The translations under genes were made by a program, and so were the position numbers. The notes under the pieces are model-generated. The model did no database searches and was not told where the DNA came from. It saw nothing but the letters and a program-made list of their open reading frames with translations. A DNA stretch of 64,000 nt from Gemmobacter caeni (GTDB lineage: Bacteria; Pseudomonadota; Alphaproteobacteria; Rhodobacterales; Rhodobacteraceae): positions 382,546 through 446,545 of the forward strand of contig NZ_QBKP01000002.1 of assembly GCF_003054195.1 (NCBI RefSeq), in the 5' to 3' direction. Positions within the stretch are counted from its first letter, which is position 1; every line of letters begins with the position of its first letter. Below, piece by piece: positions 2,179 to 35,449 of the stretch.

Positions 2179-2595
2179 TCACCGGAGCTTCAGGTGTCCG
2201 GTCAGGGCGTGGATCCGGTCCGGGTCCCCGGGCCCGATCGCGAGAGCGGTCCTCGTCGGGACCCCGTTGAACTCGGTCCGGCCCGCGTCCGTGATCAGGC
2301 AGCAGGGGATCCGCTCGCGGAGCGCGGCCGCGTGGAGGGCCGTAAGCTCCTCCTCCGTGTCGACCCCGACCGCCACCTTGGCGAAGGGGCCGTCGAGCCA
2401 CATCCGGACGAACGGGTCGCGCCGGTGCGCGAGATAGGCCCCCATGGAGGCGTGCGCCCCCTGGGCGATCTCCTTGCCGCGCCGCATCTTCAGATCCGTG
2501 CGCAGGATGATCATCTGTTTGAGCCGCCCCTCATGGCGGCGCATGAGGCGGCGGAGCGCCCACATGGGCAGGTATCGTCCGATGAGCCGGAACAT
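2179..2595 (-). CDS. pth2: Peptidyl-tRNA hydrolase 2 (Pth2 family), 138 aa
   Basis: Pth2 cleaves the ester bond of peptidyl-tRNAs that drop off ribosomes; it is the archaeal/eukaryotic type and uncommon in bacteria. The protein matches the family throughout: an N-terminal basic segment, then ILRTDLKMRRGKEIAQGAHA (residues ~30-49), FAKVAVGVDTEEEL, CCLITDAGRTEF, and LAIGPGDPDRIHALTGHLKL at the C-terminus. ATG 2595 has GGAG upstream. The gene lies between prfH and the first tRNA of the array, all on one strand, and would work with prfH to release tRNAs from stalled translation. A second, divergent pth2-like gene lies at 34.4 kb. Confidence 0.92.
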   Translation of the reverse strand: MFRLIGRYLPMWALRRLMRRHEGRLKQMIILRTDLKMRRGKEIAQGAHASMGAYLAHRRDPFVRMWLDGPFAKVAVGVDTEEELTALHAAALRERIPCCLITDAGRTEFNGVPTRTALAIGPGDPDRIHALTGHLKLR

Positions 2596-19153: not shown

Positions 19154-20383
19154 TCAAAAGAGATCGGGGTCCTCGGGAGTCAGTGATGCCCGCTCTGTGC
19201 CGCGGCACCTGAGGGTTGAGGTCTCGCCGGAACTGTTCACGCTCAGGATATCGTGCGCCTCCTCCGCCGTCGGCGGCTCCCTCTTGAGGGCGAGGTGCGT
19301 GATGACCTGGTCAGGCACCGCGTTCTCCCCTCTCCCCCGGTTCCTCTCCATGGCAATCCGGGTTGGCACGTCCAGGCTGACAATCTGGACAGAAGCGTCA
19401 TAATCCCTTGCGAGACCTACGATCTTCTGCCTTGTGAGCCGTGTGAGGCAGGTCGCATTCCATGCGAAGTCCTGACCGGACCGCAGGTGAACGCGGGCCG
19501 CCTCGAAGCCAGACTGTAGGACGGCGCCTTGGTTCTCTGTCGGTCCGACCCCGAGACCTTCCCGGATCCGGTCGAGAGAGACGACCGGAAGCTCTGGCCG
19601 GTTTGCGCGGAGCCAGCTGTCCTTGCCGGACCCCGGCAGACCCGACAGGATGGTCACGCAGGGTCCAGTCGGATCTGGCGGGGTGAACCATGGGGAGGCG
19701 TTCACGTCCCCCCGTAGGAACCGGAGCCGGGACGTGTCGCTCTTGAAGGGCCAAGGGCCCTCCAAGAGATCCACCTGATGTGTCTCACGCACCTCCTGTA
19801 ACGCGATCCGAAGGAGCTGGAGTGGAAACAGTTTATCCCCGTCCGACAGGGAGATGCGCCCGTTCTGGTCCGCCTCGCACAGAGCGAGCAGCTCGGCCCA
19901 GCCCCCCTCCCCCGCTTCGATCGAGAACCGGATCGCCTTGTTCAGGGTCTGGTCGAACCCCTGGTCGATGAGGTGCGAGGGACGCATGTGCCAGGCGACG
20001 AGCGCGTGAACGTCCCGGGCGAAACGGACCGGCGCCCCCTCGTCGATCAGGTGCTGCCAGATCATTCGCGCGCCGAGGGCGGCGTGACCCGGCTGGCGAA
20101 CCCGGACGCGGCCCCCCTCCTCCTCGATCACGGTCGTGGCGGGCTTTCCGATGTCATGCGACCAGGCGGCGACCCGGAGCACCTCCTGGCGTTCGGGACG
20201 CATCGCCCGGAAGGTCGGGTCCGCCTCGAGCGCCTCGACCACACGCGCGGTGTGCTCCCAGGGGGAGCCCTCGGCGTGGTGGACCGGGTCGTGGGCGCAG
20301 GCGTCCATCGCCTGAAACCAGGGGAAGACCCCCGCCATCTCCGTGCGCCCGGCGCCCCGCCGGGCCATGTCGATCCAGCCCAT
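19154..20383 (-). CDS. HD-Pnk: HD phosphohydrolase fused to polynucleotide 5'-kinase, 409 aa
   Basis: HD-Pnk enzymes heal broken RNA: the HD domain removes 2',3'-cyclic or 3' phosphates and the P-loop kinase phosphorylates 5'-OH ends, making substrates for a ligase. The HD motif (SHDIGKP) is at residues ~75-81 with further His residues at ~100 and ~126-132. The kinase P-loop GLPGSGKD is at 248-255, followed by VSLDRIREGLG (the S-D-R-I-R element of T4 Pnk-type kinases). ATG 20383 has AAGGAT and lies 11 bp after the RNA ligase stop, so the two are co-translated. Together they form a complete heal-and-seal pair. Confidence 0.9.
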   Translation of the reverse strand: MGWIDMARRGAGRTEMAGVFPWFQAMDACAHDPVHHAEGSPWEHTARVVEALEADPTFRAMRPERQEVLRVAAWSHDIGKPATTVIEEEGGRVRVRQPGHAALGARMIWQHLIDEGAPVRFARDVHALVAWHMRPSHLIDQGFDQTLNKAIRFSIEAGEGGWAELLALCEADQNGRISLSDGDKLFPLQLLRIALQEVRETHQVDLLEGPWPFKSDTSRLRFLRGDVNASPWFTPPDPTGPCVTILSGLPGSGKDSWLRANRPELPVVSLDRIREGLGVGPTENQGAVLQSGFEAARVHLRSGQDFAWNATCLTRLTRQKIVGLARDYDASVQIVSLDVPTRIAMERNRGRGENAVPDQVITHLALKREPPTAEEAHDILSVNSSGETSTLRCRGTERASLTPEDPDLF

Positions 20384-33328: not shown

Positions 33329-34273
33329 ATGATCCGCGCCCTCCTTCTCGCCTGCCTCCTCCTGTCGCCCGTGGCCGCCCTCGCCCAGACGCAGGCGCGG
33401 ATTGAGCCGGGCGAGCGCGAGACGATCACGGCGCACGGGGTCTGCCGTCAGGTGACGAACGGGAACGGCGCCTCCGTGATGATCCCGCTTTCCACGCCCC
33501 AGGAGTGGAGCCAGGGGGGCGCCGCCTTCCTGGCCGCCCCACGTCCCGGGATGACGGTTGAGAGCTGCACCCGGGACATCTGGGCCTGGGAGTACATGGA
33601 CGGGGTCATGATCGTCTGGCAGGGACCCAGCATGACGGATTATGAGGCGGGCGGTCTGGAGATACAGACCAGATTCCCCCAGTATACCGGGAACCCGAGC
33701 AGTTACGCCAACATGATCCCCCCCTGCGGCCCCGGGAAGGGGGGCGAGCGGGTCACGATCATCCAGGGGACGCCCGGCCAGCGGGGCGTCTACATGCAGC
33801 ACGTCTGCAATAACGCGACCCCGGTCGACCCGTTCAGCTTCCCGAACGGGACCGTGGCGGCGAGCGGGTACTGGACCTCGCCGCAGATCACCCTCTCGGG
33901 GATCCCGCATACCCGGACGGAGGCGCTGGTGGTCGGGGTGGTCGGCCTCGGCTGGTCGGACCCGAACGGGGGCTGCTGCTCCTTCAATTATGACAGCCGG
34001 GTCCTGATCAACGGATCCGCCAATGCTGGCGGATATAATGTTCCGATCGGGCGGATCGACCCGGCATCGCCGTACTTCGCCGACTTCGTCGACGCCTACG
34101 GGCCGGCCGTGAACGGGAGCGGGGTGCAGACCGGTCCCTCCTTCGCGGTCGCGGTCCGCAACGGGGACCGGATCCAGCTCCGCCTCCGCGCCACCCGGGA
34201 CCCGGGCGTGACGCTCACCTATTTCGTGAAGATCGGTCAGCACATCACCTATTTCACGCTCACCACCACATGA
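33329..34273 (+). CDS. Predicted secreted protein, 314 aa
   Basis: ATG 33329 has GAGGA upstream (ATG 33320 is an alternative). Signal peptide: RALLLACLLLSPVAALAQ. The mature region is rich in Gly, Pro and aromatic residues, with paired Cys (GGCCSF) and a beta-rich C-terminus ending YFVKIGQHITYFTLTTT. It resembles an exported adhesin-like or surface protein; no family is recognised. A variant TTCGCA motif lies ~45 bp upstream. Confidence 0.7.
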   Translation: MIRALLLACLLLSPVAALAQTQARIEPGERETITAHGVCRQVTNGNGASVMIPLSTPQEWSQGGAAFLAAPRPGMTVESCTRDIWAWEYMDGVMIVWQGPSMTDYEAGGLEIQTRFPQYTGNPSSYANMIPPCGPGKGGERVTIIQGTPGQRGVYMQHVCNNATPVDPFSFPNGTVAASGYWTSPQITLSGIPHTRTEALVVGVVGLGWSDPNGGCCSFNYDSRVLINGSANAGGYNVPIGRIDPASPYFADFVDAYGPAVNGSGVQTGPSFAVAVRNGDRIQLRLRATRDPGVTLTYFVKIGQHITYFTLTTT

Positions 34274-34292
34274 GGGGCGATTCGGTATTGAA

Positions 34293-34299
34293 TTTCGCA
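34293..34299 (+). promoter_or_regulatory. TTTCGCA motif before the suppressor tRNA
   Basis: AATTTCGCAAG begins about 35 bp before the tRNA; nine bases later TAGCTT could act as a -10-like element. The same spacing pattern (TTTCGCAAG, 8-9 nt, TAG) precedes the vWA gene at 35.92 kb. Confidence 0.4.
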
Positions 34300-34325
34300 A
34301 GACGGTCCCTTAGCTTGACGGGCAT

Positions 34326-34401
34326 GGGGCCGGAGCTCGGATGGCAGAGCAACGATCTCTAAAATCGGATGCGCGGGTTCGAACCCCGTCGGCCGCCACC
34401 A
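34326..34401 (+). tRNA. Putative amber suppressor tRNA, anticodon CTA
   Basis: The fold is: acceptor GGGGCCG/CGGCCGC (six of seven pairs; 2-71 mismatched), D-stem GCTC/GAGC, anticodon stem with loop CTCTAAA, T-stem GCGGG/CCCGT with loop TTCGAAC. The anticodon CTA reads UAG. There is an A27-G43 mismatch and one extra base before a CCACCA end. It is on the opposite strand to the array and 39 bp before a pth2-like gene with UAG at codon 3. The charged amino acid is unknown. Confidence 0.72.
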
Positions 34402-34440
34402 GAATCAGGGTCCGGACCCCCGGACAGAAAGAGAAGCGAG

Positions 34441-34992
34441 ATGTTGTAGGTTCCTGGAACGCCTGAAGCGGACGCGGCCGAGCTCCGGCTCTACGCGATC
34501 CTGCGCAGCGACATCCGGATGTCCGACGGAAAGGCGCACGCCCAGTCCGGACACGCCTACACAGACACGCTCCTCCACGCTCTTCAGCATGATGACCCGC
34601 GGGCCAGCGCCTATGCACGGCTGCGTCCCGGGACGAAGGTCTGCCTGAACGGCGGATCCCACGCGGAGATGCTGCGTCTCCTCGACCGGCTCTCCGCGAC
34701 CCCCCTGCCCCATATCGCGATCATCGACAGCGGCCATGTGGAGCCGCCCGATTTCGACGGGTCCCCGGTCCTGACCGCGATCGGGGTGGGCCCGATCCGG
34801 CGCTCTGAGGCGCCCCCCTTTCTCAAACGGCTCCCGCTCTGGGCCCGGCCCGCCGGTCCGGAGGGCGTGCCTGATCGCCCCGCCACGTCCGGATCGCCCC
34901 GCCCGCCTTTGTGGGTGCCCGCGATCACCGGCTGCCGCTCCTCACCTCACCCCCGTCAACCTGTCAGCCCCAGAAAGGGACCCCATGAGTGA
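34441..34992 (+). CDS. Pth2-like peptidyl-tRNA hydrolase with in-frame TAG at codon 3
   Basis: The frame ATG(34441)-TTG-TAG-GTT-CCT continues open to 34992. The family's first strand, LRLYAILRSDIRMSDGKAHA, and its HAYTDTLL helix lie after the TAG and before the next ATG (34519), so an internal start at 34519 would lose the first strand. Later motifs: GTKVCLNGGSHAEML, PHIAIIDSGH and LTAIGVGP. GAGAAG upstream is a weak ribosome binding site. Full product needs readthrough of UAG, which the adjacent CTA tRNA could supply. The C-terminal ~50 residues are a Pro-rich tail. Alternatives are a nonsense mutation or a non-standard start. Confidence 0.72.
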
Positions 34993-35449
34993 TTTCAGAG
35001 ACTGCCCCGCCTGTTCAGATCTCCTCGAGGAGACCGGATGCGCCGATCCCGCCTGCGCGTCCTGCATGGGGACCGGGGCGCGCCCGCTCGATCAGGCGTC
35101 GATCGAGCTGGCCCTGTCCGCGAGGGACTGGGTCGACGAGCGGGTCTCCGACCTCTTCTCGGACTGGTGCCGCCTGATGGGGGTCCACGCCGCCTACGGG
35201 GTCCACCGCTGGGAGACCTGGGGGGACAAGCTCCGGGTCATCCAGGACACCTCCTGCCGCGGCTGCTTCGACACGGAGACCCGGGAGCTCGAGCTCTGCT
35301 GGCTCTGGATGGGGCCGCCGGAGCGGGAGGCGGCCATCACCGCCCTGCGCAGGACGCGGGAGGCGGCGGAGGCCGCCAAGGCGGCCGCGGCCCGTGAGGG
35401 CCGGATCGGGCAGCTCCGCGCGGAGCTCGCCCGTCTCGAGCGGGGCTGA
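34985..35449 (+). CDS. Hypothetical zinc-binding protein, 154 aa
   Basis: ATG 34985 follows AAGGGACCCC and overlaps the end of the pth2-like gene. CPAC and CASC in the first 30 residues form a likely zinc ribbon, with a third pair CRGC in the middle. The C-terminal third is a long Ala/Glu/Arg helix, probably a coiled coil. No family is recognised; the operon position links it to the suppressor-tRNA/pth2 unit. Confidence 0.68.
   Translation: MSDFRDCPACSDLLEETGCADPACASCMGTGARPLDQASIELALSARDWVDERVSDLFSDWCRLMGVHAAYGVHRWETWGDKLRVIQDTSCRGCFDTETRELELCWLWMGPPEREAAITALRRTREAAEAAKAAAAREGRIGQLRAELARLERG

What the first reader, a model, noticed from the sequence alone, without database searches (positions are those of the whole stretch)
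34326..34992. Amber suppressor tRNA directly upstream of a Pth2-like gene with UAG at codon 3
A plus-strand tRNA with anticodon CTA ends 39 bp before ATG 34441. That frame reads ATG-TTG-TAG and then continues as a full Pth2-like protein whose first beta strand lies between the TAG and the next ATG. A suppressor tRNA and a suppressible gene on one transcript suggest a self-contained switch: Pth2 is made only when the CUA tRNA is charged. Since Pth2 frees tRNAs from peptidyl-tRNA, the loop could sense tRNA or translation state. The tRNA and the in-frame TAG are seen; the regulatory link is inference.
Basis: partly seen in the sequence, partly recalled or inferred. Interest (0 to 1): 0.95.

Follow-up and report, generated by a model that had tools for sequence, protein, structure and literature searches.

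The report
tRNA-keyed lock on a hydrolase gene
A gene for a tRNA-recycling enzyme on a bacterial megaplasmid carries a stop codon near its start and a matching stop-reading tRNA gene just upstream; many relatives on giant phages and megaplasmids keep such a pair, some with another stop codon or a frame-shifting four-base site and a matching tRNA, so the enzyme is likely made only when its own dedicated tRNA is present.

Summary
Confirmed, and wider than the finding. Window 34326-34401 is a CUA tRNA; 39 bases on, a Pth2 gene reads ATG-TTG-TAG and stays open, its first beta strand lying between the TAG and the next ATG. The contig looks like a conjugative megaplasmid with 39 tRNA genes and a second, ordinary Pth2. 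Of 182 unique Pth2 ORFs surveyed, 55 have an in-frame 5' stop and no usable start after it: TAG in 49, against 11 of 40 uninterrupted mobile-element and 18 of 78 uninterrupted genome-contig ORFs. Of 50 curated TAG loci, 35 have a CUA tRNA in the fetched locus, 35 of 35 on the same strand, 16 within 500 nt upstream. TGA-locked elements (3) carry UCA tRNAs; the TAA-locked one carries a UUA tRNA. In 12 loci Pth2 lies in the +1 frame after a four-base site; 10 have a tRNA just upstream, with exact four-base complement (TAGC, TGAC or CATT) in 7 of 9 compared. Stop and tRNA covary, so pth2 is most likely tRNA-locked. Readthrough itself, the inserted residue, what the lock senses, and quadruplet rather than slipped triplet reading are untested.

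The parts
34326..34401 (+). tRNA gene, anticodon CUA (7-base loop CTCTAAA), with encoded CCA: the key
   Evidence: ARAGORN, Rfam 43.3 bits, fold
34402..34440 (+). 39-base spacer/leader between tRNA and pth2, weak ribosome-binding site
   Evidence: sequence; SD scan; no promoter or terminator pattern in 33900-35100
34441..34449 (+). ATG-TTG-TAG: start and in-frame amber codon at codon 3: the lock
   Evidence: sequence
34441..34992 (+). locked pth2 frame (183 codons with TAG read as a residue)
   Evidence: (PF01981)
34483..34506 (+). codons 15-22, first beta strand of Pth2, upstream of the next ATG
   Evidence: predicted structure; alignment to PDB 2zv3
34519..34521 (+). internal ATG (Met27), where the table-11 ORF 34519-34992 begins; too late for a whole Pth2
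2179..2514 (-). second, ordinary Pth2 on the same contig, no early stop (internal control; longer starts are possible)

Best explanation
The megaplasmid's second peptidyl-tRNA hydrolase gene opens ATG-TTG-TAG, and Pth2 is likely made only when the dedicated CUA tRNA, encoded 39 bases upstream, reads that UAG instead of the release factor. It is a lock and key: without the tRNA a ribosome would stop after Met-Leu; with the tRNA transcribed, processed and charged, it would read through and make Pth2. Shown by sequence: the early stop, the tRNA, the first strand that would be lost if translation began at the next ATG, and the covariation of stop and anticodon across phages and megaplasmids. Inferred: that readthrough happens, that it is efficient only with this tRNA, and that the purpose is a licence (a coherent feed-forward AND gate) which holds back this extra Pth2 until the element's own tRNA set is running, for tRNA recycling or ribosome rescue at that stage. 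In the +1 variants the same lock would be opened by a tRNA that reads the +1-frame codon overlapping the stop, probably pairing with four bases.
For: (1) Stop identity: of 55 Pth2 ORFs with an in-frame 5' stop and no usable start after it, 49 have TAG, 5 TGA, 1 TAA; uninterrupted ORFs have TAG in 11 of 40 (mobile, one more had no stop in reach) and 18 of 78 (genome contigs) (Fisher 8.7e-10 against the first, 3.2e-16 against both pooled; rows are related, so p is too small). (2) CUA tRNA in the fetched locus: 32 of 46 automatic TAG loci (phage, viral, own); 35 of 49 after moving L079, L080, L088, 36 with L092 (Rfam); uninterrupted: 0 of 34 besides those three and the window's own paralogue (Fisher 6.7e-13). 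(3) Of 50 curated TAG loci 35 have it, 35 of 35 same strand, 16 within 500 nt upstream of the stop. (4) Covariation: TGA with UCA in Atu_ph07, L084, L087; TAA with UUA about 110 nt before the TAA in L373; four-base sites with complementary tRNAs. (5) Eight close relatives keep TAG in 8 of 8 while lead and post-stop codons vary mostly at third positions. (6) L082 and L189 carry a second in-frame TAG in the body at a like place. (7) Specificity: SD-ATG-short lead-stop-ORF patterns are not enriched for TAG in 400 of 469 kb of Phosso or on the window contig; TAG ends 31 of 406 and 59 of 394 ORFs there. (8) 65 of 69 rows on one side of the tree are locked, 2 of 45 on the other (weak branch, 58/83). 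(9) A C-A or A-C mismatch closes the anticodon loop in 7 of 8 ARAGORN-called +1 tRNAs and 15 of 56 stop-reading tRNAs, but in 8 of the other 377.
Against: No protein, RNA or charging data. The window's ATG has no good Shine-Dalgarno, and its tRNA has a bulged acceptor and the third-lowest Rfam score of 30. In 11 of 50 TAG loci no CUA tRNA was confirmed; two of these (L109, L110, nearest relatives of the window gene) have a CTA loop directly upstream that neither ARAGORN nor Rfam calls a tRNA. At least 3 of 15 whole records with an uninterrupted Pth2 also carry CUA tRNAs (XacN1, RAS14, LR756511), so such tRNAs have other uses or none. Four rows inside the locked side of the tree show no lock (L085, L302, L311, L093b). 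Of 44 database homologues 10 start upstream of strand 1 or at its beginning, so some may be unlocked; their DNA was not seen. TAG-ended ORFs do not have a nearer backup stop than others (Phosso medians 17 codons for TAG, 13 TGA, 10 TAA), so general suppression leaves no trace. Of the 12 +1 loci, L083 has no matching tRNA found and L298 only an array tRNA-Ser(GCU) 0.8 Mb away.
Confidence: 0.82

Rival explanations
1. Short leader ORF with re-initiation: ribosomes end at the early stop and restart at a downstream ATG, giving an N-terminally shortened Pth2.
For: An ATG (Met27) follows 23 codons after the TAG, and 32 of 44 database homologues are annotated from that Met. Some loci (L079, L080, L088) have an ATG right before or in strand 1.
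Against: The first beta strand would be lost in the window protein. Lead and post-stop codons evolve as coding sequence. Re-initiation explains neither the cognate tRNAs nor why the stop is TAG in 49 of 55, nor the +1 variants.
Confidence: 0.08
2. General reassignment of TAG in these elements, as in code-15 phages; pth2 is only one of many recoded genes.
For: Many jumbo phages do recode TAG, with CUA tRNAs (PMC13037316, passages).
Against: TAG ends 31 of 406 ORFs in 400 kb of Phosso and 59 of 394 on the window contig; SD-ATG-short lead-stop-ORF patterns without early start number TGA 6, TAA 4, TAG 3 in Phosso and TGA 29, TAG 11, TAA 7 on the contig (the window pth2 itself escapes that scan for lack of an SD). 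Different elements lock the same gene with TAG, TGA, TAA or four-base sites.
Confidence: 0.05
3. In the +1 variants the tRNA reads an ordinary +1-frame triplet after a slip at the stop, as in prfB (RF2), and four-base pairing is incidental; or the nearby tRNAs play no part.
For: A stop at the shift site is prfB-like (recalled). By ARAGORN the tRNAs have 7-base loops with triplet anticodons GCU, GUC, AUU or AAU that read the +1-frame codon; the fourth match is the base after the anticodon, which is often A anyway. In L303 and L098 the loop is closed by G-C. Rfam's cut-off is reached by 5 of the 9 compared (L299, L111, L113 and L098 are below it).
Against: 10 of 12 +1 loci have a tRNA just upstream; the anticodon match changes with the site (TAGC, TGAC, CATT), and in both CATT loci the base after the anticodon is G, pairing with C. 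The loop-closing mismatch seen in 7 of 8 is rare in other tRNAs.
Confidence: 0.3
4. The stop codes a special residue placed by a dedicated synthetase, as for selenocysteine or pyrrolysine.
For: Phosso has a 250-aa class II synthetase-like gene and a CysRS gene near its CUA tRNA; a serS gene lies near pth2 on Bosea pANAM02.
Against: The stop-reading tRNA bodies are ordinary and differ between elements; the position lies in a variable N-terminal tail. The window was not searched exhaustively for synthetases.
Confidence: 0.06

Closest known systems
Suppressor tRNAs and TAG recoding in phages (code 15; crAss-like and jumbo phages)
   Same: Phage-encoded CUA tRNA reads UAG as sense (PMC13037316, passages; PMC9523058, abstract in a search listing).
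   Different: There TAG is recoded across many genes; here one gene is locked, TAG remains an ordinary stop, and TGA, TAA and four-base versions exist.
Orphan suppressor tRNAs of Atu_ph07 (UCA) and XacN1 (CUA)
   Same: Atu_ph07 is one of the locked cases: in-frame TGA in pth2 and a UCA tRNA.
   Different: The authors spoke of several potential targets without naming one (PMC6102473, passages) or could identify none (PMC5852040, passages). XacN1's own Pth2 has no early stop.
Synthetic suppressor-tRNA feed-forward 'leak dampener' (PMC7969014, outline and abstract)
   Same: Same circuit: output gene with nonsense codons plus a co-controlled suppressor tRNA as AND gate.
   Different: Engineered in E. 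coli; here natural and kept on one gene.
Quadruplet tRNAs (PMC9094753, passages; PMC4764823, abstract in listings)
   Same: tRNAs that read four bases, UAGN among them.
   Different: Those are engineered or arise as frameshift suppressors, typically with an extra loop base (partly recalled); [quoted passage not shown] Here the loops count 7 bases with a mismatched closing pair, and decoding is untested.
Mitochondrial cases in which quadruplet-reading tRNAs have been considered (PMC5009743, passages)
   Same: The review mentions a cox1 of dinoflagellate-like protists (ten frameshifts or else tRNAs reading AGGU and CCCU) and unusual anticodon loops in a glass sponge and in a phage.
   Different: Many sites or no known function there; here one site in one gene with a dedicated tRNA beside it.
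prfB (RF2) autoregulatory frameshift (recalled)
   Same: An early stop gates a translation-factor gene; +1 variants have the same geometry.
   Different: No dedicated tRNA in prfB; most members here are in-frame readthrough.
PTH2 peptidyl-tRNA hydrolase of jumbo phages (PMC7824862, passages)
   Same: Same enzyme family, proposed there for ribosome rescue.
   Different: The words 'suppressor' and 'stop codon' do not occur in that paper's main text.

Membership tests
PTH2 peptidyl-tRNA hydrolase (PF01981) | sequence match over the gathering score | tested here: met
   51.2 bits against cut-off 23
PTH2 peptidyl-tRNA hydrolase (PF01981) | Pth2 fold | tested here: met
   model mean pLDDT 85; Foldseek 2zv3_B E 2.4e-7, TM 0.86 by target
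PTH2 peptidyl-tRNA hydrolase (PF01981) | catalytic activity | not testable with these tools
   G30, K31, Q35, H38, D96, T112 and others are invariant in ten aligned Pth2; their catalytic roles are recalled
Amber suppressor tRNA | tRNA structure with CUA anticodon | tested here: met
Amber suppressor tRNA | charging and decoding of UAG | not testable with these tools
   indirect only: covariation
Code-15 (TAG-recoded) genome | TAG no longer used as a stop | tested here: not met
   TAG ends 59 of 394 ORFs on the window contig, 31 of 406 in 400 kb of Phosso
Quadruplet-decoding tRNA (+1 relatives, not the window) | four-base complement between loop and +1 site | tested here: met
   exact in 7 of 9 compared; L111 would need an inosine-type pair, L098 has GCTA one loop position off
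Quadruplet-decoding tRNA (+1 relatives, not the window) | extra base in the anticodon loop | tested here: inconclusive
   ARAGORN reads 7-base loops; an A-C or C-A closing mismatch opens them to nine in 7 of the 8 called; Rfam shows nine in L300, L301, L304
Quadruplet-decoding tRNA (+1 relatives, not the window) | shown to shift the frame | not testable with these tools
   needs a reporter assay
prfB-type frameshift | +1 shift at an early stop | tested here: not met
   the window gene is in frame 0; the geometry is met only in the 12 +1 relatives

The most novel reading that the evidence does not exclude
Giant phages and megaplasmids carry an encrypted gene: pth2 is written with a three- or four-base stop near its start, and a dedicated tRNA is the key. 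Lock and key have been rewritten together more than once (UAG/CUA, UGA/UCA, UAA/UUA, UAGC/GCUA, UGAC/GUCA, CAUU/AAUG), and the four-base versions would be natural quadruplet decoding dedicated to a single gene, of which I found no earlier case.
Probability: 0.57. Interest if true: 0.97.

Novelty: categorically new. Interest (0 to 1): 0.95.

Why it matters
It gives orphan suppressor tRNAs of some large phages and megaplasmids a concrete candidate target, for example the UCA tRNA of Atu_ph07, which its authors left without a named target (PMC6102473). It suggests that nature uses the suppressor-tRNA AND gate that synthetic biologists built (PMC7969014). It puts natural quadruplet decoding, said to be absent as a code (PMC9094753), within reach of a simple reporter test, since the genomes themselves name the codon and anticodon partners. 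It also points to an annotation error: 32 of 44 database homologues found are annotated from an internal Met and lack their first beta strand.

Tried and rejected
Global TAG recoding: rejected. Pseudogene: rejected by conservation in 63 interrupted ORFs of 182 and by the codon pattern. A second pth2 hit flagged '1 TGA': the TGA is its normal end. CUA tRNAs as a general mark of Pth2-bearing phages: not seen at locus level (0 of 34), but at least 3 of 15 whole control records have them. Close plasmid DNA matches to the window: none. 195 related genomes searched for this Pth2: a match in 1, the window's own. An earlier reading that the +1 tRNAs have plain 9-base loops was mended: ARAGORN reads 7-base loops with a mismatched closing pair. 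For that reason the odds of the novel case went from 0.65 to 0.57 and of the slip rival from 0.2 to 0.3.

Known faults of the automatic table: L079, L080, L088, L299, L301 and L111 were filed 'uninterrupted' because a start codon falls before or inside strand 1, though they have the lock; L387 was filed 'other' (TGA) but is +1; L401 (TGA) is probably ordinary; L082 and L189 were missed because of a second TAG in the body; L340b and L104b are weak second copies, dropped but kept. The Fisher tables (36/13/0/34, 49/6/11/29, 49/6/29/89) were typed by hand from the counts. In one search the arms were chosen by eye after seeing the mRNA sites. In some searches not every pattern match was fetched (for example 6 of 68 in G010), so 'not found' is weak. 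Tree: 114 of 182 ORFs used; most genome-contig rows and short ones were dropped, some labels set by hand.

Full report
WHAT IS THERE. The tRNA at window 34326-34401 is called by ARAGORN and Rfam (43.3 bits against a cut-off of 29), with anticodon CUA in a normal 7-base loop. It folds with a 7-bp acceptor and one bulged base and is closest to tRNA-Trp(CCA) among 37 other tRNAs of the same contig. 39 bases later ATG-TTG-TAG opens a frame that runs to 34992 and encodes a PTH2-family peptidyl-tRNA hydrolase (PF01981, E 1.7e-13). The predicted fold matches solved Pth2, and strand 1 (residues 15-22) lies between the TAG and the next ATG (Met27). Solved Pth2 chains align from their residues 2-9 on at that strand, so a start at Met27 would give an incomplete protein.

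WHERE IT IS. The window is the right end of a 446,545-bp contig with conjugation genes (CagX, TrbL/VirB6, TraG-like coupling protein), 39 ARAGORN tRNA genes (30 in the window, 8 in L003, 1 in L279) and a tmRNA. I read it as a conjugative megaplasmid. It has a second Pth2 at 2179-2514 (minus strand) without an early stop, which groups with uninterrupted phage Pth2.

THE PATTERN IN NAMED PHAGES. The only phage record sharing DNA with 34250-35000 was Sinorhizobium phage Phosso, and the shared stretch is its CUA tRNA. Phosso's pth2 has an unannotated upstream start: AGGAG, ATG-AAG-TAT-TAG, then open into Pth2. Agrobacterium phage Atu_ph07 has ATG-ATT-GGC-GAA-CAC-TTT-TGA, then open into Pth2, and a UCA tRNA that its authors reported without naming a target (PMC6102473, passages). 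Ten other phage Pth2s looked at have a start codon after the last stop and no such lock.

SURVEY. Pth2 loci came from viral contigs, genome contigs, phages and plasmids (several lists capped, see Tried and rejected). After removing duplicates there are 182 ORFs. A rule blind to stop type and tRNA filed 48 as in-frame stop with a short ATG lead, 7 as interrupted without such a lead, 8 as +1 and 119 as uninterrupted. The in-frame 5' stop of the 55 interrupted ones is TAG in 49, TGA in 5, TAA in 1; in uninterrupted ones TAG bounds 11 of 40 (mobile) and 18 of 78 (genome contigs). Among phage, viral and own loci a CUA tRNA lies in the fetched locus in 32 of 46 TAG cases and 4 of 38 uninterrupted; three of these four are misfiled locked genes and the fourth is the window's paralogue. 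In the curated TAG set 35 of 50 have it, 35 of 35 on the pth2 strand, 16 within 500 nt upstream of the stop. One more is seen by Rfam (L092, 36.6 bits) and three more on the wider contig, in six such contigs searched (L357, L372, L383): 39 of 50.

COVARIATION. Of the five TGA rows, L084 and L087 carry UCA tRNAs about 4.4 kb downstream and Atu_ph07 has one elsewhere; L387 turned out to be +1 and L401 is probably ordinary. TAA-locked L373 (no ATG lead, GTG possible) has a UUA tRNA about 110 nt before the TAA. In 12 loci the ATG frame stops early and Pth2 continues in the +1 frame. Six of them encode S-C-x-R right after the four-base site, in TAGC and TGAC versions alike (L299, L301, L304, L303, L298, L098). 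Ten have a tRNA just upstream (arms 71-228 nt before the ATG in the nine measured). In these nine the four bases at the loop centre are the exact complement in seven: TAGC with GCTA (L299, L301, L304, L113), CATT with AATG (L297, L300), TGAC with GTCA (L303). L111 (TAAC with ATTA) would need an inosine-type pair, and L098 holds GCTA one loop position off. L387 (TAGA) has a stretch ATTCTAAA containing TCTA, read by eye, in a tRNA of 38.3 bits. ARAGORN reads eight of these tRNAs as Ser(GCU), Asp(GUC), Asn(AUU) or Ile(AAU) with 7-base loops, so the triplet anticodon alone reads the +1-frame codon, and the fourth pair is made by the next base. Because A is common there, the fourth pair is strongest in the CATT cases, where it is G. 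In seven of the eight the loop-closing pair is an A-C or C-A mismatch, which opens the loop to nine bases; the same mismatch occurs in 15 of 56 stop-reading tRNAs but in 8 of the other 377 distinct tRNAs in hand (rows not independent). Rfam reaches its cut-off for L297, L300, L301, L303 and L304 (44 to 51 bits), not for L299, L111, L113 and L098. Carriers include pMPPla107 of Pseudomonas amygdali and megaplasmids of Pseudomonas, Bosea, Rhizobium and Vibrio. The four Variovorax plasmids match; the one inspected (L302) has no lock.

TRANSLATION THROUGH THE STOP. In eight close relatives the lead peptide (M-L/I-x-N-S-F-L) is kept with mostly third-position changes (2, 1, 4 variable columns at positions 1, 2, 3; 64 synonymous against 25 other pairwise codon differences), TAG is fixed in 8 of 8, the post-stop stretch shows 6, 5, 16 (122 against 114), and 26 of 30 columns before the ATG vary. 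In L082 and L189 a second TAG interrupts the Pth2 body after an Asp-Pro.

SPECIFICITY. In 400 kb of Phosso the pattern SD-ATG-short lead-stop-long ORF without early start occurs with TGA 6, TAA 4 and TAG 3 times, pth2 among the latter; on the window contig TGA 29, TAG 11, TAA 7, where the window pth2 is not picked up for lack of an SD. TAG is an ordinary terminator (31 of 406 and 59 of 394 ORFs). So the lock looks gene-specific. TAG-ended ORFs of Phosso have no nearer backup stops than others.

HISTORY. In the tree of 114 rows, 65 of the 69 rows on one side are locked (TAG 49, +1 12, TGA 3, TAA 1) and 43 of the 45 on the other are not; the dividing branch is weak (58/83). The +1 label needs 6 changes and TGA 2, which suggests that lock and key were rewritten together more than once.

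HOW IT LIKELY WORKS. Inference: the tRNA is a licence. Pth2 is held off until the element's own tRNA is transcribed, processed and charged and can beat the release factor. That is a coherent feed-forward gate, like the engineered leak dampener (PMC7969014, abstract). Several elements that carry it also have tRNA arrays, tmRNA or RNA-repair genes; jumbo-phage Pth2 has been proposed for ribosome rescue after tRNA cleavage (PMC7824862, passages). Because the stop comes after a few codons, a failed attempt costs little, and the short peptidyl-tRNA made on readthrough may itself be a Pth2 substrate, which could add feedback; this is speculation.

LITERATURE. Nine searches of the open-access library gave no paper on a suppressor-tRNA-locked pth2 or on a quadruplet tRNA dedicated to one natural gene in the listings and passages I read; subscription papers and preprints were not searched. 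One review (PMC5009743, passages) mentions phage tRNAs with unusual anticodon loops not known to cause frameshifting, and mitochondrial genes for which quadruplet-reading tRNAs have been considered.

Noticed in passing
L109:5698-5821 and L110:5713-5841: SAM-I/IV riboswitch matches (47.3 and 45.7 bits, over gathering) upstream of the locked pth2 in Roseivivax and Defluviimonas, next to a CTA-bearing tRNA-like arm.
   Followed up: no
window 34985-35449: The next ORF starts inside the end of pth2 (ATGAGTGA overlap); Phosso and Atu_ph07 also have an ATGA overlap with the next gene, so readthrough could gate a second protein by translational coupling.
   Followed up: no
L089:6352-6429, L078:1944-2020, L311:8143-8219: ARAGORN reports tRNAs with four-base anticodons (GTAA, GGAA, TTTG) in phage contigs; targets unknown.
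   Followed up: no
L002:8400-9152: A 250-aa class II aminoacyl-tRNA synthetase core gene one gene after Phosso's CUA tRNA, with a CysRS gene shortly before it; either might charge that tRNA.
   Followed up: no
L082 and L189: A second in-frame TAG in the Pth2 body after an Asp-Pro, in two phage contigs.
   Followed up: partly
L085:5908-6045: Relative without a stop: tRNA-Lys(UUU) lies directly upstream and pth2 starts ATG-AAA-ATG; perhaps a lock that has reverted.
   Followed up: no
L092:1-213: Partial match to the GOLLD RNA family (46.2 bits, below the cut-off of 150) in a phage contig with a locked pth2 and a tRNA array.
   Followed up: no
window 19154-20383 (-): Polynucleotide-kinase-like protein with HD and AAA_33 domains near the tRNA array, possibly tRNA repair.
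   Followed up: no
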